From a virus, in IMG/VR virus record IMGVR_UViG_3300026276_000001, positions 1-40,320 of that record: a stretch of DNA of 40,320 bases; one strand, given 5' to 3'. This document shows positions 74 to 39,584 of the stretch, in pieces. Within the stretch, counting starts at the first letter, position 1; each line of letters starts with the position of its first letter. Under the pieces are notes generated by a model. That model saw nothing but the letters and a program-made list of their open reading frames with translations. It was not told the origin of the DNA and did no database searches. A program made the position numbers and the translations under genes.

Positions 74-163
74 GGAAGCGTGGCCGAGTGGTTGAAGGCA
101 CCAGTCTTGAAAACTGGCGACGGGTTACACTGTTCGTGAGTTCGAATCTCACCGCTTCCGCCA
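74..163 (+). tRNA. tRNA-Ser (anticodon UGA), prophage attachment target
   Basis: The acceptor arms GGAAGCG (74-80) and CGCTTCC (153-159) pair. They are followed by the discriminator G and an encoded CCA. The anticodon loop CTTGAAA gives anticodon UGA. A long variable arm is present, as class II serine tRNAs require, and the T arm holds GTTCGAATC. The 3' half from the anticodon loop onward (106-163) is duplicated at 39527-39584, so the gene is rebuilt by the prophage-host junction and should stay functional. Its transcript now ends at the phage-side terminator at 172-202. Confidence 0.95.
106..163. repeat. attL core, 58-bp direct repeat
   Basis: The segment from the anticodon loop to the encoded CCA is identical to 39527-39584. 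Identity stops abruptly on both sides, with CAGT before the left copy against TAGA before the right, and GAAAA after the left against AGAAA after the right. This is the normal footprint of a tyrosine integrase that targets the 3' end of a tRNA gene. Confidence 0.95.
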
Positions 164-202: not shown

Positions 203-257
203 ACTTTTTTGGTCCGTCACGAATAGTTCGGCCACCATGTGCATGACACAAATATTT

Positions 258-290
258 GACAACTTGCGGAAACGGTTTCCGCAAGTTGTC
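258..290. repeat. 33-bp perfect palindrome
   Basis: Two 16-bp arms (258-273 and 275-290) meet at a single central G; the inner part reads TTGCGGAAACGGTTTCCGCAA apart from one flanking base each side. No T-run follows, so it is not a typical terminator. It may bind a dimeric protein or be a recombination-related site. Confidence 0.75.
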
Positions 291-465
291 ACGTTTCGCC
301 GCCAGATGAGCATGTAACATCGATCAAATTTCATTTCTATAACTGCAATGTTTTGGTGAATTCTCACCGAATGTATCAAATTTCCCTTGAAAAACCACGC
401 TAAGTGTGTCTGTAAATCCTTTCTAATCCTATCTTTTCGGCAAAGCCAGTGGCATAATTCACCTG

Positions 466-488
466 TTGACAAGCAAAGTACTTGTCAA
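466..488. repeat. Inverted repeat upstream of the Ntn hydrolase gene
   Basis: The arms TTGACAAG (466-473) and CTTGTCAA (481-488) are separated by 7 bases. The repeat lies about 80 bases before the ATG at 569 and contains a -35-like TTGACA. It may be an operator for that gene, but no matching -10 box is clear. Confidence 0.5.
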
Positions 489-568: not shown

Positions 569-1303
569 ATGACTACAAACGTTTTTGACGTAAATGTTGG
601 GCAGTTAACGAGCGATAGTCGCTGGTCGTTTGAGGAATCAGATTGGTTTGTGTACGTAGACGATACCGGCTATGACAAGATTAGTTTTGATGACGTGCTA
701 GGTTTCGCATTCGCCGGCAATGTTACCAACATCGATGTTTGGAAAAAATGGGTAGCTGGCGGACGTCCAGCTCCGGCCCCGATGGGCCATCTGGACCAGA
801 TGTCACTGATTATCATGAACATGTCGGATGGAAAGTTGGAATTTGCATCTGATTACATGCTCTTTTCCCATGCTGGGAATGCCATCGAGGCCTTGTATGG
901 CGGTAGCGGCGGTCCATTTGCAAAAGACTGCTGGACCTCTAACCGATGCGCCCAGACGGCAATTGAAAGTGCAAAGGTTAAGGACACGTTCAGTGGCGGC
1001 AAGATGAAATTCCTGATGCGCGGCACTAAGAAGAATAATCTTTCCACTAACACTGACGTTGCTGAAATTAGCGAACATTGCAAGCAAAAAGGTGTAATGA
1101 TGAACATGAAAAATCCGGCAAACACGGTACTTGTGAAGGATGCTGCGAACGATCCTTCAAATCAAGTCGCGCAGTCCGTTGCGCAGAAAGTCATGAATGG
1201 AAAGGCAGTGATGAACGCGCCGTTCCCAGGCATGAATCAGCCATGGACATTGGAAAAAAAATCGGAGCTGGCCAGTGTTCTTGATCGCTTCACCGCTAAG
1301 TGA
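569..1303 (+). CDS. HslV/proteasome-beta-like Ntn hydrolase (putative threonine peptidase)
   Basis: The 244-aa product begins Met-Thr-Thr, so removing Met would expose an N-terminal threonine, the nucleophile of HslV and proteasome beta subunits. Other parts match HslV in order: a DSR at 16-18 (HslV Asp17 region), Lys37 (Lys33 region), GFAFAGN at 45-51 (AGFAGG region) and GGSGGPFA at 111-118, very close to the GSGGPYA of HslV. This supports ATG 569 over an upstream GTG at 539; AGAAG at 553-557 is a fair ribosome site. HslV is about 175 aa, so the last ~100 residues are an extension without a recognised domain. No HslU-like ATPase is nearby. The gene sits between attL and the integrase, a usual cargo position, and ends at a terminator shared with the integrase. 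Its target is unknown; protection of the lysogen or proteolysis of a phage or host factor is inference. Confidence 0.75.
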   Translation: MTTNVFDVNVGQLTSDSRWSFEESDWFVYVDDTGYDKISFDDVLGFAFAGNVTNIDVWKKWVAGGRPAPAPMGHLDQMSLIIMNMSDGKLEFASDYMLFSHAGNAIEALYGGSGGPFAKDCWTSNRCAQTAIESAKVKDTFSGGKMKFLMRGTKKNNLSTNTDVAEISEHCKQKGVMMNMKNPANTVLVKDAANDPSNQVAQSVAQKVMNGKAVMNAPFPGMNQPWTLEKKSELASVLDRFTAK

Positions 1304-1323: not shown

Positions 1324-1353
1324 AAAAAAAGCCCGTTAATACGGGCTTTTTTT
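1324..1353. terminator. Bidirectional terminator between convergent genes
   Basis: Perfect 13-bp arms (AAAAAAAGCCCGT and its complement) flank a TAAT loop. It serves the rightward Ntn hydrolase gene and the leftward integrase operon. Confidence 0.9.
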
Positions 1354-1379: not shown

Positions 1380-2438
1380 CTATCTGGTCGGTTTTACCAG
1401 CTCCCCCGCGCGCCGGTAGACTCGTTTTGTAATCTCCTTGTTGGTGTGTCCGAGCAACTGGCTTGCCTCGTCAAGGCTGATAATTTCGCTGGCCGCCTTC
1501 GGCCGGATATCGCGGAACTGGAAGGACTTGATGCGGCTGGCCAGTCCGGTCTTGCCTGCTTCCTCTGCCTTCGCGCTCGCCGCCAGCCGGGCTGGGCCGA
1601 ACCTGTCACGCATCATTTTCATGGAGAGCTGGCGGCCGGATTCGGTACAGACCAAAGTGTCGCCGCCGCAGGCGATAGCGCGGGCTTCCAGTCGTTTGAC
1701 GCACTTGCCAAGGTCAGTGAGGCGGTTGCCATCCGATAGGCTGATTCGCAGCAGCTTGCCGCGCTTTCCCTGGCGCACACGCAGCTCGTCGTCGCGCACG
1801 TCCTCCAGTTTCATTTTGAGTACGTCGGCAGGGCGCTGCCCGGTGAGGTAGTTGAGGTCCATCGCGTCCTTGAGCGCGTCAGATGCGAACTCGTAGACTG
1901 CTATCCAGACGTCCTCTTCGGCATAGTAATCGCGCGGCTGCTCCTTATTCTTGCGAACGCCGCGACAGGGGTTCTCGCGCTTGGTATAACCCCATTCTCG
2001 CGCCATATTGAACACATGGGAGAAGAGGGATATCTCGCGGTTCGCGCGCACCTTCGCCGTGCGTGCATCGCGGTAGCTGGCGATAACCTGCGGCGTTATC
2101 GCGTCAATTGGGGCGTTGTCGAACACTGGCCGTAGCTGCCTAAGTGAGTCGCTGTTTTCTACCTGGGTCCCTTTCCCCTTGGAGGGCAGGATATCCCGGA
2201 TGTAGCGGTCAAAAATGAACGTCATGAGGGTCGTATCCTGCGGCGCCTCGACGCTTTCAAGTTCGGCCCATTTGCGCTTCGCTTCGTTCAAGTCCGTGCC
2301 GAGGGGGATTTCCTTGCGCTTGCCGGCATCGTCTCTGCCGTTGTAGTAGTAGCCAATCCAGAATTTTCCGGATGCTAACTGCCGCTTGCGCATCACCATG
2401 CGCGGCGGCAGTTTGATTCCTGTTGATTTAGGCCGCAT
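1380..2438 (-). CDS. int: Tyrosine-recombinase phage integrase
   Basis: This 352-aa protein catalyses site-specific integration and excision at the tRNA-Ser attachment site. The catalytic domain is in the C-terminal half: Arg202 in LTGQRPADVL, a box II region RDIR (309-312), His331 in LLGHTNKEIT and the nucleophile Tyr341 in RVYRR. In most family members the third position from the second arginine is His, but here it is Arg309. The N-terminal 160 residues hold the arm-binding and core-binding regions. The start is preceded on the minus strand by an AAGGTAAGG ribosome site. It is the last gene of the leftward operon, 4 bases after the DUF4224 gene, and ends against the shared terminator, the normal place for int next to attL. 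Confidence 0.95.
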   Translation of the reverse strand: MRPKSTGIKLPPRMVMRKRQLASGKFWIGYYYNGRDDAGKRKEIPLGTDLNEAKRKWAELESVEAPQDTTLMTFIFDRYIRDILPSKGKGTQVENSDSLRQLRPVFDNAPIDAITPQVIASYRDARTAKVRANREISLFSHVFNMAREWGYTKRENPCRGVRKNKEQPRDYYAEEDVWIAVYEFASDALKDAMDLNYLTGQRPADVLKMKLEDVRDDELRVRQGKRGKLLRISLSDGNRLTDLGKCVKRLEARAIACGGDTLVCTESGRQLSMKMMRDRFGPARLAASAKAEEAGKTGLASRIKSFQFRDIRPKAASEIISLDEASQLLGHTNKEITKRVYRRAGELVKPTR

Positions 2439-3223: not shown

Positions 3224-3916
3224 TCAGGCTATGCGCAGCTGGTCCGCTTGCTTGCCGATTCCAGCGTGTACCTGGGCTTTGCTGCCCTGTAGCCAGCCGT
3301 TGGTTGCGTGGCGTTCGGACTGCGCGCTGTTCGCCAGTTCGCGCCTTGTGGTGGTGAGCGCGCCCAGCTCGGGATGGCGCAACGCCACGAAAGCGTTAAC
3401 CGCAGCCTGGCGGTCGACGTCGATGGCGGGGAAGTGGACGTTTCGGCCGACTGCTTGAACCCAGCCTGCGCAGAATTCATCGGCTGCCGCTACCTTGTTT
3501 TTGCGGTAGCGGGCCAGATGGGTTTTCGTATATTCAGCGCGTGCCCGAACCAGCTGGGCGCTAAGTACCGAGTAGGTGTAGGCCGCAACCTCGGCGGCCG
3601 ATCCTGGGGCGATGAATGTGTAGCCGCCGACAAGCGTGCCGCGCTGATACTGGGAGGAGAAAATCAGCTTGCAGCTAAACATCCTGGCCACGATGTTGGC
3701 CAGCTGGACCTCGTATTCTGGTGGGCGCTTTGCGGCGCGACCCTTCGCCCATTGTTCGGCTACGCTTGAGGCCAGCAGCTCGGGATTATCGACATCGAAG
3801 CGGGCCATAAGCGCTTGCGCTTGCGCCATCGCGCGCGCCGCCTCTTCGGGGAAGGTTGAGTGTTTCGCACGCGACAGGCACGCGCGGATTTTTCGGAGTG
3901 CGTCGTCGCGGGTCAT
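3224..3916 (-). CDS. DUF2786 domain protein
   Basis: This 230-aa protein begins DDALRKIRACLSRAKHSTFPEEAARAMAQAQALMARF, the signature of the DUF2786 N-terminal domain. It is followed by a second domain with VGGYTFIAPGSAAEVAAYTYSVLSAQLVRARAEY, as usual in the family. These proteins are common in phages and mobile elements and their biochemical role is unknown. The start overlaps the stop of the ParB-like gene as ATGA, so expression is coupled to it. A 65-base gap without gene signals separates it from the next gene of the leftward operon. Confidence 0.8.
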   Translation of the reverse strand: MTRDDALRKIRACLSRAKHSTFPEEAARAMAQAQALMARFDVDNPELLASSVAEQWAKGRAAKRPPEYEVQLANIVARMFSCKLIFSSQYQRGTLVGGYTFIAPGSAAEVAAYTYSVLSAQLVRARAEYTKTHLARYRKNKVAAADEFCAGWVQAVGRNVHFPAIDVDRQAAVNAFVALRHPELGALTTTRRELANSAQSERHATNGWLQGSKAQVHAGIGKQADQLRIA

Positions 3917-5781
3917 GCTGCGGTCCCTTCTTCTGTGGTAGCAATGCTGAGTGCGCGGTTCTTCTTAATCTTGATGATCGGCTGGCCGTCAGTCTTCTGG
4001 TCGTCCGCTTGTTCGGCCTTTGGCTTCAAGGTGATTTTTGTTCTCGGCGCTTCTTCTGGCGTGGACGCTGGCGGCGTGACGCTGCCGTCGTCGTTGAGGA
4101 CTCCTTCGTGTTTTGCCATGCGCAGCAGCGTTTGATAGCCCTTGAAATTGTCGTCGTCCTGGTCCTCTTCCAGTTCGCCGTCCTCGTCAAGGTGCCAAGG
4201 CTCAACGCCAAGCCAGTCGCCGCAGACCAGGTCAACGATAATCTGTTGCACCTCGGAAGGGCCGGCTTGATCTATGTATGCGCGCACGGCATTATCATCG
4301 CGCGCGGTAAGGGCGTAGGTATCGCTCAGGATGTCGTCGGGCAGCGAATACTCATTGAGCATTTGCTTTGCCACTTCGCGCAGCGTTCCGAGCTTGAAGC
4401 CATTGGCGCCGGCCGCGCGCACTTTCTTGTAGAGGTTGACGCGCTCGGTCGTCAGTTGCTCCGCGCGTTCGGCTTGTGCTGCCTCGGCAGCGATGCGGGC
4501 CTTTTCGGACTCGGTCTGTTTTTTAATGGAAGCGGTCGTGGCGTCGCCGCCGGCAGCGGTGCGTGCCTCGCGCGCGGCTTCGCTTTCGCAGGCGCCTGCG
4601 GCTTCAAGGGCGAGCTGCGTCGCGTCGCGGTCATAGAGTGCTTCCAGCCTGCCGTCGCCGCCTTTGACGTAGGCGACGACAGGCGGGCGCTGTTCCGTCT
4701 TCAAATAATTACGGACATAGCCCGCCATGCCGGTGCCTGGCGTTACGCGGTCGAATGTGTAGATGGGCGTGTCTGTACCGACGAGTGTGCTGCCTCGGCG
4801 ATAGATCACGCCCCACACTTCGCTGGCATCTTGCCCCTCATGCACTGGGATGCCTTGTTTCTTCGCTTGAGCGGCCAGCTTGATATAGTGCGCGGCGGTC
4901 TTCTCTTGGAAGCAGTAGGGATCGGTGCAGGTGTCGGCTTGGATGCCCACGAATACCAGGGGCTGATTGCCTGCGAGTTTAGGGCATGCAATGCATGAGC
5001 CAGCGTCTGGCAGCAGCTTGGCGTCTTTAATCACGAACACGGCCTTTTTCAGGTCCAGCATGTACTTGTCCTGAATCCATTGCTTCGCCCTGCGGAAGGA
5101 CATCGGATCGTCCGTAGGCAATCCGTTCGGGCGCAGGATTTCGCGCACGGCTTGGCTCTGCAAGCTGGCCACCGGGATGCGGGCAATCAGCAGCGCGGTC
5201 GACGCTGGCAGATGCTCTTGGTTGTCCAGGAACTGCTCCCGCACGTCGAGATTCAGCGCGCACAACTTGAGGCGGCCGTAAATGTAGCTGCGACTCTTGT
5301 CCAATTTCTCGGCCAGCTGGTCGGCGTTGTATCCGTGCTTCATCATGAGGCGTTCGTAGCCCTCAGCCTCTTCCAGCGGGTGCGGATCGTCGCGCTGAAG
5401 GTTTTCCAGAATTTGCAGCTCCAGCGCTTCCATGTCGCTGAGGATTCGGCACATGGCCGGAATAACTTGAAGGCCCGCCATAAGGGATGCGCGGAATCTC
5501 CGCTCGCCGGCGACGATTTCATAACCTTGCGGTTCCTCCTCGGTGGCCGTCACTGGTCGAATCAAAATCGGTTGTGCGACACCTTTGGCCTTGATGCTAG
5601 CTGCAAGTTCGTCCAGCTTGGCCGAGTTGAAGCGTTTGCGGTTGGTCTTAGAAATGCGGATGTCCGCCACCGAGTAGTGGCCGAAAGTGCCAGTATTGGC
5701 AGGCACCTCGTCGGCGCCCACTGGCTGGTATGTTATCGCCGACAGTTGCGGCGCCGGGAGGATGGTCAATTCGTTGCTCAT
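3913..5781 (-). CDS. ParB/Spo0J-like DNA-binding protein (orphan, no ParA)
   Basis: This 622-aa protein has a ParB N-terminal domain (residues ~36-130) with IRISKTNRKRF, GERRFRA at 92-98 (the CTP-binding box) and ENLQR at 126-130. A helix-turn-helix follows at about 150-170. Next comes a Cys cluster (CIACP and CTDPYCFQEK), seen in large phage and plasmid ParB-like proteins, then a charged Ala/Glu coiled-coil region and a C-terminal acidic/basic tail. The start chosen is the ATG at 5781, where the family similarity begins; an upstream in-frame start at 5850 would read through the palindrome at 5809-5826. No ParA-type ATPase is in the prophage. With palindromes scattered along the phage DNA, it may bind these as a partition, condensation or regulatory factor. 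That is inference. Confidence 0.88.
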   Translation of the reverse strand: MSNELTILPAPQLSAITYQPVGADEVPANTGTFGHYSVADIRISKTNRKRFNSAKLDELAASIKAKGVAQPILIRPVTATEEEPQGYEIVAGERRFRASLMAGLQVIPAMCRILSDMEALELQILENLQRDDPHPLEEAEGYERLMMKHGYNADQLAEKLDKSRSYIYGRLKLCALNLDVREQFLDNQEHLPASTALLIARIPVASLQSQAVREILRPNGLPTDDPMSFRRAKQWIQDKYMLDLKKAVFVIKDAKLLPDAGSCIACPKLAGNQPLVFVGIQADTCTDPYCFQEKTAAHYIKLAAQAKKQGIPVHEGQDASEVWGVIYRRGSTLVGTDTPIYTFDRVTPGTGMAGYVRNYLKTEQRPPVVAYVKGGDGRLEALYDRDATQLALEAAGACESEAAREARTAAGGDATTASIKKQTESEKARIAAEAAQAERAEQLTTERVNLYKKVRAAGANGFKLGTLREVAKQMLNEYSLPDDILSDTYALTARDDNAVRAYIDQAGPSEVQQIIVDLVCGDWLGVEPWHLDEDGELEEDQDDDNFKGYQTLLRMAKHEGVLNDDGSVTPPASTPEEAPRTKITLKPKAEQADDQKTDGQPIIKIKKNRALSIATTEEGTAA

Positions 5782-5808
5782 GTTTTCTATCTCGTAGATG
5801 GTGTGCGA

Positions 5809-5826
5809 TGTGCAGACGTCTGCACA
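5809..5826. repeat. Palindrome copy 1, upstream of the ParB-like gene
   Basis: This perfect 18-bp palindrome contains the 16-bp unit GTGCAGACGTCTGCAC (5810-5825). It fills most of the 46-base gap between the stop of the upstream gene and the ParB-like ATG, starting 28 bases before that start. The place suggests autoregulation or a ParB-binding centre. Confidence 0.9.
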
Positions 5827-5827
5827 A

Positions 5828-6358
5828 TTAGTCGATGTCGTTTGCGGCAAGCATTCGGTAATCCACCGGGCGGTATCGGGGCCGGCGCGCTCGTGCAGCG
5901 TTGCGTATCAGCAGGCGCAGCGCGGTGTCCTTCATGGCGTCTTCCAGGGGGAGAGCTATTGCCAGACTGCGGTGTGCTGCGACGAGGGCAGCGTGGTCGG
6001 GTTCTGCGGCTTGGCGTGTCTGTTTGACCGGTCCTACCGAGATACCGCACGGGTCGGCACCATACTTTTCGGAGGCATATTCATACGCGCCGTAGCTGGT
6101 CGTGGCGCGGGTTTTGAATTGCGTGGTTTTGGTTTCGGTTTTCACGCGCACGTTGAATTCCCGCAGGATGTGCGCGTGAATTAGCAATGCCGTGCGCAGG
6201 TCGTCGGCGGTGTCGCCGGCAGTCCCGCTTAGGCCGGCAGCCCTGAGAAGTTCTAGCGCATTGTTGGCTGCGGCTTGCAGCTTTTTGCCAGACTGCGTAA
6301 CAGCTGCGGCGAGTTCGCGCATCGTGCTGTTGGCGAGGGTGTGCGGTGCGCGCGCCAT
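5828..6358 (-). CDS. Phage early protein of unknown function
   Basis: The 176-aa product starts at the ATG at 6358, preceded by a strong AAGGAGG ribosome site; an in-frame GTG one codon earlier is not needed. The start overlaps the stop of the upstream gene by one base (TGATG), so the two are coupled. The sequence is helical with repeated Ala/Leu patterns (ELAAAVTQSGKKLQAAANNALELLRAAG), then an Arg/Lys-rich part and a basic C-terminus (RRPRYRPVDYRML). No membrane segment or known motif is visible and no family is recognised. It precedes the ParB-like gene in the leftward operon. Confidence 0.7.
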   Translation of the reverse strand: MARAPHTLANSTMRELAAAVTQSGKKLQAAANNALELLRAAGLSGTAGDTADDLRTALLIHAHILREFNVRVKTETKTTQFKTRATTSYGAYEYASEKYGADPCGISVGPVKQTRQAAEPDHAALVAAHRSLAIALPLEDAMKDTALRLLIRNAARARRPRYRPVDYRMLAANDID

Positions 6359-6708: not shown

Positions 6709-6882
6709 TTGCAAATGAATCAAGTTGAAGAAAAGCTGTTGAGTGACTTTCGGGCAATGGCGCCAAATGCCCAAACGATGATCTTAAAGCAGGCCAGCAG
6801 GTACGTGGAGTTGTTCCCCGCACCTCGCCGCATGCGCCCAGACCTAAGACTTGTCACTATTGGAGCTAAGGCGCGGCTGTGA
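6709..6882 (+). CDS. Small phage protein converging on the repressor gene
   Basis: A short frame encodes 57 aa from TTG 6709, or 55 aa from ATG 6715. GAGGGG at 6696-6701 is 7 bases from the TTG and 13 from the ATG, so the TTG start is better placed. The product includes LLSDFRAMAPNAQTMI, then a helix with ASRYVELFPAPRR and RPDLRLV near the end. This looks like a genuine small phage protein type found beside repressors. It overlaps the 3' end of the repressor gene by 39 bases on the opposite strand. Function unknown. Confidence 0.55.
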   Translation: MQMNQVEEKLLSDFRAMAPNAQTMILKQASRYVELFPAPRRMRPDLRLVTIGAKARL

Positions 6883-7224
6883 CACCTTTGGAGCATCTTC
6901 GGCCGTGGCGATTATAAATGCCCTTCCATCTTGGGCTGACTCCCTATACAGAGTAAGCAGATATAGCTCCTCAGTGTCTACATACACGAGTGCTAGGGAT
7001 TTCGGTTGGTTTGCCGTTTTTGGATTTTCTATTACTAGAAGTTCATCAAGTGAGAGGCCGAGAACCTCGGCTACCAAAACGGCCTTGCTGCGCGAAATTT
7101 TTCCGGTAAGTGTCCATTTTGACACTGCATTAATTGATACACCAGCCTGTTCTGCGAGCCAGCCCTGGGTCTTATTTAAGGCCGCTAGGCGGTTCGCTAT
7201 CGTTTTTCCAATTTTTTGTTCCAT
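6844..7224 (-). CDS. CI-like phage repressor, XRE helix-turn-helix, no peptidase domain
   Basis: This 126-aa protein has an N-terminal XRE/Cro-CI DNA-binding domain (about residues 5-62): IANRLAALNKTQGWLAEQAGVSINAVSKWTLTGKISRSK and VLGLSLDELL. The C-terminal half is short and has no Ser/Lys LexA-type peptidase motif, so RecA-stimulated self-cleavage is not expected. The start at 7224 is where the family similarity begins; a longer frame to 7389 would overrun the cro gene and the operators. The likely promoter puts transcription start at or next to the ATG, making the mRNA leaderless. It should bind GGTTGAA/GGTTTAA half-sites and maintain lysogeny. Confidence 0.85.
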   Translation of the reverse strand: MEQKIGKTIANRLAALNKTQGWLAEQAGVSINAVSKWTLTGKISRSKAVLVAEVLGLSLDELLVIENPKTANQPKSLALVYVDTEELYLLTLYRESAQDGRAFIIATAEDAPKVSQPRLSSNSDKS

Positions 7225-7230
7225 GCCTAC

Positions 7231-7259
7231 ATTCTCAGGTTGAAGGATGCCGTGTTCAA
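7231..7259 (-). promoter_or_regulatory. Repressor gene promoter (PRM-like)
   Basis: On the minus strand TTGAAC (7254-7259) and GAGAAT (7231-7236) are 17 bp apart. The expected start falls on the A of the ATG at 7224, so the message would lack a leader. The -10 match is imperfect. Confidence 0.5.
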
Positions 7260-7288
7260 CCAAGTGCTGGTTGAATTTAAATTCAACC
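7238..7288. promoter_or_regulatory. Half-site array between repressor and cro
   Basis: GGTTGAA or its complement occurs at 7238-7244, 7255-7261, 7269-7275 and 7282-7288. A perfect 20-bp palindrome, GGTTGAATTTAAATTCAACC, spans 7269-7288. The repeated half-site is the likely recognition unit for both switch proteins. Confidence 0.75.
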
Positions 7289-7299
7289 TGTGGTTTAAT
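7271..7299 (+). promoter_or_regulatory. Rightward early promoter (PR-like), leaderless
   Basis: TTGAAT (7271-7276) and TTTAAT (7294-7299) are 17 bp apart. The predicted start at 7306 or 7307 coincides with the cro ATG at 7307, so the mRNA would begin at the start codon. The -10 lies inside the operator at 7281-7299. Confidence 0.65.
7281..7299. promoter_or_regulatory. Operator OR
   Basis: ATTCAACC-TGT-GGTTTAAT is an inverted repeat with a 3-bp spacer, the same design as OL1 and OL2. It covers the -10 box of the rightward promoter. Confidence 0.75.
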
Positions 7300-7306
7300 T
7301 CGCTTC

Positions 7307-7534
7307 ATGGAACTCACCTCAATTACCCCTATTGCAAAGGCTGTGGACGAAGCCGGCGGTGTCGCAGTCATTGCGACCGCATTCGGCATTAGTCCACAAG
7401 CTGTCTATAAATGGATCAGGGCCGGTAAGGCGCCTGGCAATCGATGCGTCCGGTTAGAGCAGTTGTCAAACTTTGTGGTGAGTCGCCATGAACTTTGCCC
7501 AGACACATTTGGCGAAAAGCCAATAGGGCACTGA
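7307..7534 (+). CDS. Cro-like transcriptional regulator
   Basis: This 75-aa protein opens MELTSITPIAKAVDEAGGVA and contains the helix-turn-helix VIATAFGISPQAVYKWIRAGKAPGNRC, typical of the Cro/YdaS family. It is transcribed divergently from the CI-like gene, 82 bases apart. The chosen start, ATG 7307, matches the usual family length; an upstream in-frame ATG at 7247 would run through the operators. No Shine-Dalgarno sequence is present and the promoter places the transcript end at the ATG, so leaderless translation is likely. It should repress the CI promoter and permit lytic growth. Confidence 0.85.
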   Translation: MELTSITPIAKAVDEAGGVAVIATAFGISPQAVYKWIRAGKAPGNRCVRLEQLSNFVVSRHELCPDTFGEKPIGH

Positions 7535-39526: not shown

Positions 39527-39584
39527 CTTGAAAACTGGCGACGGGTTACACTGTTCGTGAGTTCGAATCTCACCGCTTCCGCCA
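39527..39584. repeat. attR core, 58-bp direct repeat
   Basis: The segment is identical to 106-163. It carries the tRNA-Ser 3' half from the anticodon loop to CCA but no 5' half, so it is not a functional tRNA. Host sequence follows. Confidence 0.95.

What the first reader, a model, noticed from the sequence alone, without database searches (positions are those of the whole stretch)
569..1303. HslV-like threonine peptidase carried as prophage cargo
MTT start, Asp16, Lys37, GFAFAGN and GGSGGPFA follow the order of HslV. A 100-aa C-terminal extension and the lack of a nearby ATPase set it apart. It occupies the cargo site between attL and int. A stand-alone or host-ATPase-dependent peptidase made by a lysogen could be an undescribed exclusion or regulatory device.
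Basis: partly seen in the sequence, partly recalled or inferred. Interest (0 to 1): 0.7.

Follow-up and report, generated by a model that had tools for sequence, protein, structure and literature searches.

The report
Prophage-borne stand-alone proteasome-like peptidase
A temperate phage carries, just inside its integration site, a gene for a small proteasome-like protein-cutting enzyme with no partner ATPase; it belongs to a known but uncharacterised family that we find scattered through many unrelated prophages, several times in spots where phages keep anti-phage genes, so it may protect the infected cell against rival phages.

Summary
Observation confirmed. Window 569-1303 (+) encodes a 244-aa N-terminal-Thr protein. 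AlphaFold2 (39 relatives) gives pLDDT 94.9, and Foldseek's best solved matches are proteasome beta subunits and HslV. It lies between attL and int of a complete prophage bounded by a 58-bp direct repeat; the record holds no AAA/AAA_2 ATPase.
Correction: it is not HslV. Profile comparison shows no similarity to HslV or Anbu but a collinear match (P 97.7, E 1.8e-12) to the ~140-aa phage proteasome homologs. The active site is proteasome-type (T2, D16, K37, G50, S113, D139, S142). Helix H2 looks absent and a ~90-aa C-terminal domain is added. These features fit 'RPC' of Fuchs et al. 2021 (PMC8665760), uncharacterised; no RPC sequence was available to compare.
New here: ~72 family loci, overwhelmingly phage-borne and AT-rich (44/44 tested below flanking GC), 36/48 with their own terminator. 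About 13/50 lie beside a cI-like repressor, several beside int. At least three lie beside the portal of P2-like prophages, the locus of the published P2 defence hotspot.
Most likely an ATPase-independent, substrate-specific Thr hydrolase acting as a lysogenic-conversion (moron) gene, plausibly superinfection exclusion. Function is untested.

The parts
569..1303 (+). gene for the proteasome-like (RPC-type) Thr hydrolase, 244 aa; GC 47.9% versus 60.5% for the rest of the prophage
572..574 (+). Thr2 codon, presumed nucleophile (Thr1 after Met removal)
   Evidence: 69/69 (position was in the search pattern)
614..616 (+). Asp16, equivalent of proteasome/HslV Asp17
   Evidence: 69/69 (position was in the search pattern)
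677..679 (+). Lys37, equivalent of Lys33
   Evidence: 69/69, not in the search pattern
716..718 (+). Gly50, equivalent of the oxyanion glycine (Gly47)
   Evidence: 69/69
905..907 (+). Ser113 in G-[S/T]-G, equivalent of proteasome Ser129
   Evidence: S 52, T 17 of 69
983..994 (+). Asp139-x-x-Ser142 followed by GG; equivalent of proteasome Asp166-x-x-Ser169-GG
   Evidence: D 69/69, S/T 69/69
1034..1300 (+). C-terminal domain (about residues 156-244), conserved in the family, no PDB sequence match
74..163 (+). tRNA-Ser (tga), integration target
106..163 (+). attL copy of the 58-bp direct repeat
39527..39584 (+). attR copy of the 58-bp direct repeat
1380..2438 (-). tyrosine integrase, convergent to the gene
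   Evidence: phrog_1, E 3.1e-39
1324..1353 (.). inverted repeat with flanking A/T runs: likely bidirectional terminator between the gene and int
466..488 (.). TTGACAAG-N7-CTTGTCAA inverted repeat upstream of the gene, possible operator; only copy in the record
257..291 (.). 35-bp palindrome (17-bp perfect arms, 1-nt centre) between attL and the gene; function unknown
6844..7389 (-). prophage repressor-like regulator
   Evidence: phrog_8 E 5e-10, phrog_4 E 1.3e-8

Best explanation
The gene encodes a stand-alone proteasome-like N-terminal-threonine hydrolase of the RPC type: a phage PPH-like core without helix H2, plus a C-terminal domain. It is a mobile lysogenic-conversion (moron) cassette. 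Proposed working: host methionine aminopeptidase removes Met1 and exposes Thr as nucleophile (established for HslV; inferred here). Asp16/Lys37 activate it, Gly50 forms the oxyanion hole, and Ser113/Asp139/Ser142 complete the site (shown as conservation, inferred as chemistry). Without the H2 surface and without an unfoldase it does not work as an HslUV-style degradation machine. It cleaves, or by analogy with connectase religates, a small set of accessible or unfolded substrates chosen by the C-terminal domain (inferred). It is expressed in the lysogen from its own transcription unit and most likely acts on a protein of a superinfecting phage (inferred).
For: Fold: AF2 pLDDT 94.9, pTM 0.90; Foldseek prob 1.00 to proteasome beta5 and HslV and to phage 'Proteasome subunit beta' CcrBL9, TMt 0.69. 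Active site complete in 69/69. Profile match to PPH-like phage proteins E 1.8e-12 and to V5-type phage proteins E 3.5e-12, none to HslV or Anbu. Mobile cassette: 44/44 nonredundant members below flank GC; 36/48 with a terminator within 120 bp downstream against 2.2% of random positions; L035 and L117 share an 88%-identical protein and a conserved upstream region but unrelated cI genes. Position: cI-like repressor neighbours; int neighbours; next to the P2 portal gpQ in L067, L060, L044, the locus of the P2 defence hotspot (PMC9122126).
Against: No substrate, activity or phenotype is known. cI- and int-adjacent sites also hold morons unrelated to defence. No PADLOC match, and among the +-2 neighbours only scattered PADLOC hits, mostly DNA methyltransferases. 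About six of 20 members from bacterial genomes show no obvious phage neighbour. Foldseek TM-scores are moderate (0.38-0.5). Whether it is a ring, a monomer or something else could not be tested.
Confidence: 0.45

Rival explanations
1. It regulates its own prophage: a protease that trims the repressor, an antirepressor or integrase and so tunes lysis-lysogeny or prophage stability.
For: About 13 of 50 nonredundant loci lie within about 750 bp of a cI/S24 repressor and others lie beside int; a conserved upstream region in L035, L117 and L065.
Against: The neighbouring repressors and phages are of many unrelated types (L035 and L117 carry near-identical enzymes beside unrelated cI genes), so a shared regulatory target is unlikely; other members sit beside spanins, tail genes or the portal.
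Confidence: 0.17
2. Counter-defence or host takeover: expressed on infection or induction, it degrades a host defence or housekeeping protein, as the related proteins of lytic phages might.
For: Related proteasome-like genes are very common in virulent phages (over 500 records), where they cannot serve lysogeny.
Against: The RPC-like family here was not found in any of 50,697 phage records and sits at lysogeny and cargo loci; what the virulent-phage proteins do is itself unknown.
Confidence: 0.15
3. A host-fitness gene acting as an HslU-dependent or HslU-independent accessory protease, without a role in phage conflict.
For: All 8 member-carrying genomes tested encode HslU and HslV; some members lie away from obvious phage genes.
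Against: The H2 region on the unfoldase-facing side is missing; the genes are rare and patchy (2 of 394, 2 of 298 and 2 of 295 genomes in three families, counts that include the seed genomes).
Confidence: 0.13
4. It is a protein ligase or specific amidase rather than a protease, like the archaeal connectase, which lacks H1/H2 and is monomeric.
For: Loss of H2 and an extra C-terminal domain parallel the departures from ring architecture described for connectase and RPC (PMC8665760).
Against: No substrate known; helix H1 is retained; no sequence relation to connectase was tested.
Confidence: 0.1

Closest known systems
[quoted passage not shown]
   Same: Proteasome-like core without H2, extra C-terminal domain with no known match, Proteobacteria, relation to PPH, no AAA+ partner.
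   Different: Described from bacterial sequences with no phage entry and no informative genomic context; here the family is prophage cargo. Direct sequence comparison was not possible.
[quoted passage not shown] PHROG 1040 'peptidase HslV family'
   Same: Collinear core, same active site, D-x-x-S/T-G-G motif.
   Different: PPH is about 140 aa and mostly in virulent phages; the C-terminal domain is absent.
HslV (ClpQ)
   Same: MTT start, Thr nucleophile, Asp17/Lys33 equivalents, GSG motif, overall fold.
   Different: No detectable profile similarity, H2 missing, C-terminal domain, no HslU gene in the prophage.
20S proteasome beta subunit
   Same: Best structural matches; D166-x-x-S169-GG motif shared.
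   Different: No propeptide or alpha ring; low sequence similarity; H2 missing.
Superinfection-exclusion morons (lambda rex, P2 old/tin) and prophage defence hotspots (PMC9122126)
   Same: Position beside cI or in the P2 gpA-gpQ region; single autonomous AT-rich cassettes.
   Different: Unrelated proteins; no anti-phage activity shown for this family.

Membership tests
Proteasome-like (T1) Ntn-hydrolase family | Thr nucleophile exposed by Met or propeptide removal, with Asp17 and Lys33 equivalents and oxyanion Gly | tested here: met
   T2, D16, K37, G50 in 69/69; T2 and D16 were in the search pattern, K37 and G50 were not
Proteasome-like (T1) Ntn-hydrolase family | Predicted proteasome beta fold | tested here: met
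HslV | Sequence membership in the HslV family | tested here: not met
   hhalign prob 0.5 against nine HslV sequences; no Pfam or NCBIfam hit
HslV | Helix H2 present and short compact C-terminus | tested here: not met
   alignments and AF2 secondary structure
HslV | Dodecamer activated by HslU | not testable with these tools
   host genomes encode HslU, but docking and assembly were not tested
RPC | PPH-related core | tested here: met
   P 97.7, E 1.8e-12 over 144 columns
RPC | H2 absent | tested here: met
   about 27 residues after FAG versus about 44 in HslV; one helix 52-63 then loop
RPC | C-terminal extra domain without known match | tested here: met
   residues about 156-244; no significant PDB sequence hit
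RPC | Restricted to Proteobacteria | tested here: met
   members with a named host are all Proteobacteria, leaving aside L120, which is probably spurious; a few hosts are unnamed
RPC | Clusters with the published RPC sequences (WP_140207863) | not testable with these tools
   the sequence is not held; DPH is a possible alternative assignment
Anbu | Profile similarity to Anbu | tested here: inconclusive
   hhalign prob 0.1 against three Anbu loci, but that alignment also held antisense frames, so the negative result is weak
Known anti-phage system (PADLOC) | Match to a described defence protein | tested here: not met

The most novel reading that the evidence does not exclude
A proteasome-family Thr hydrolase that works without an unfoldase is a prophage-encoded anti-phage (superinfection exclusion) effector, the first defence system built on a proteasome-like enzyme, exchanged as a cassette among the accessory sites of many unrelated prophages.
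Probability: 0.35. Interest if true: 0.82.

Novelty: new member of a known kind. Interest (0 to 1): 0.52.

Why it matters
The RPC proteasome homologs were described in 2021 with no function and no informative context. Placing this family in prophage cargo loci, including a published defence hotspot, turns an orphan enzyme family into a directly testable question: does a proteasome-like enzyme protect lysogens? It also bears on how Ntn hydrolases work without AAA+ partners, and adds a candidate class that current defence databases miss.

Tried and rejected
Pfam, NCBIfam and PADLOC scans gave nothing useful. tblastn of three members against phages, and of two against plasmids, found no relative. 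Single-protein scans of viral and genome contigs failed; relatives were reached through a GSG motif and then an N-terminal DNA signature. Genome-contig pattern hits were mostly chance and were filtered by profile; L120 (48 aa, E 1.4e-6) passed but is probably spurious. A distant DNA search of E. coli genomes with one member found none. A conserved partner gene was sought: apart from cI-like repressors no neighbour family recurs in more than 4 loci. The operator-like repeat upstream of the gene occurs nowhere else in the record, so it does not show control by the prophage repressor. The C-terminal domain has no significant PDB sequence match. One phage sequence recalled from memory as a possible probe was not used in any search.

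Full report
What is there. ORF 569-1303 (+) encodes 244 aa starting MTT. The record is a virus contig containing a prophage delimited by a 58-bp direct repeat, attL 106-163 at the 3' end of tRNA-Ser and attR 39527-39584. It carries integrase, ParB-like protein, a repressor-like regulator, a CII-like activator, P-like helicase loader, terminase, portal and major head protein. The gene lies between attL and int, is convergent to int with a likely bidirectional terminator between them, and has 47.9% GC against 60.5% for the rest of the prophage. No AAA or AAA_2 family member is encoded in the record.

What it is. The single sequence hits only PHROG 1040 'peptidase HslV family' (E 1.7e-7). That PHROG profile also rings in nine of 14 control genomes, among them E. 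coli and archaea with proteasomes. A GSG motif scan found a full-length relative, and an N-terminal signature then found many more, giving a 39-sequence alignment at 25-43% identity to the window protein. AlphaFold2 on it gives mean pLDDT 94.9 and pTM 0.90. Foldseek places it with proteasome beta5, archaeal beta and HslV (prob 1.00, best E 3e-6, TM 0.38-0.51), and with phage proteins such as CcrBL9 'Proteasome subunit beta' (TMt 0.69).

Which branch. The family profile matches six PPH-like phage proteins collinearly over residues 1-155 (P 97.7, E 1.8e-12) and the V5-type phage proteins (E 3.5e-12), but not nine HslV proteins or three Anbu loci (the Anbu alignment also held antisense frames, so that negative is weak). 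Across 69 members K37, G50, G112, G114 and D139 are invariant, with S/T at 113 and 142. This is the proteasome set Lys33, Gly47, Ser129, Asp166, Ser169; HslV has D-x-C-I/V-Y/F-T-N in the last position. The segment after the first helix is about 17 residues shorter than in HslV, and the model shows only one helix there. Fuchs, Alva and Lupas 2021 (PMC8665760) describe PPH and RPC as the homologs lacking H2, and RPC as PPH-related, with an additional C-terminal domain matching no known structure, only in Proteobacteria, without AAA+ partner and without informative context. The window protein shows each of these features that could be tested, so it is filed as very probably RPC; the published RPC and DPH sequences could not be fetched.

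Selection bias. Most relatives were found with a pattern that includes T2, T3, D16, R18, W19 and S20. Two scans that used only later parts of the protein returned 16 and 8 loci: all were already in the pattern set except one that is truncated at its contig end and still has D16 and RWS. L183, found by profile search without the pattern, also starts MTT with D16.

Genomic behaviour. The 67 callable members fall into 50 clusters at 90% identity. Neighbours: repressor families lead the PHROG tally (phrog_4 in 14 of 149 neighbour proteins) and Peptidase_S24 the Pfam tally (12), followed by HTH domains and then integrases; DNA methyltransferases, spanins and portals recur too. A cI/S24 repressor lies within about 750 bp in about 13 of 50 clusters, nine of them upstream on the same strand; in those nine no intrinsic terminator was found between cI and the gene, so cotranscription is possible. 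Convergent integrases lie 44 and 65 bp downstream in L110 and L013, as in the window; more candidates were judged by eye. In three P2-like prophages (L067, L060, L044) the gene is 471-1377 bp from the portal, and in L044 a gpA-like gene appears to lie upstream. Rousset et al. 2022 define the gpA-gpQ region as a defence hotspot of P2-like phages and report another between cI and int in Vibrionaceae (PMC9122126). All 44 nonredundant members tested are AT-rich against their flanks (mean -7 points, p 1e-13; a length-matched gene control was not run), and 36 of 48 have a terminator within 120 bp downstream (control 2.2% of random positions). L035 and L117 carry 88%-identical enzymes and a conserved upstream region beside unrelated cI genes; L065 shares that region and a related cI but has an enzyme only about 30% identical. 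That upstream sequence occurs in only three loci in the viral collection, all of them family members. Of 20 members from bacterial genomes roughly 13-14 have visible phage neighbours (judged by eye). The family is rare: two hits in each of three bacterial families sampled at 394, 298 and 295 genomes, counts that include the genomes used as centres.

Mechanism. Shown: conserved complete active site, fold, absence of a co-encoded unfoldase, mobile cassette with its own terminator. Inferred: Met removal, hydrolysis, substrate choice by the C-terminal domain, independence of HslU, expression in the lysogen, and a target in superinfecting phages. Exclusion is preferred over self-regulation because the cassette occurs beside unrelated repressors and at non-regulatory cargo sites. 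Confidence in fold, active site and cargo status is about 0.95; in RPC assignment about 0.8; in exclusion or defence about 0.4.

Noticed in passing
window 257-291: 35-bp palindrome TGACAACTTGCGGAAAC-G-GTTTCCGCAAGTTGTCA (17-bp perfect arms, single-base centre) between attL and the gene; no second good copy in the record; possible att-arm, protein-binding or transcription-ending element.
   Followed up: partly
window 466-488: TTGACAAG-N7-CTTGTCAA inverted repeat overlapping a TTGACA hexamer about 80 bp upstream of the gene; unique in the record.
   Followed up: partly
window 3913-5850: Large ParB-like protein encoded on the minus strand in the early region of an otherwise lambda-like integrating prophage.
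   Followed up: no
L045 3152-3493; G980 contig C11 (L184/L185); L060 10073-10498: Members that look frameshifted or truncated, so the gene also decays in some prophages.
   Followed up: no
L089 and L159 (Pseudomonas and a gamma-proteobacterium): Family members near an HTH regulator followed by a conserved 181-aa protein (by eye an ImmA/IrrE-like pair), a different regulatory neighbourhood from the S24 repressors.
   Followed up: no
L113, L137, L145, L146, L150, L082: Members in bacterial contigs with no obvious phage neighbours (for example beside a glutamyl-tRNA synthetase in L137); possibly chromosomal strays or prophage remnants.
   Followed up: no
phages collection (e.g. NC_023693.1, NC_019405.1): Proteasome-like 'peptidase HslV family' genes are found in more than 500 phage records, mostly virulent phages, with no known function.
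   Followed up: partly
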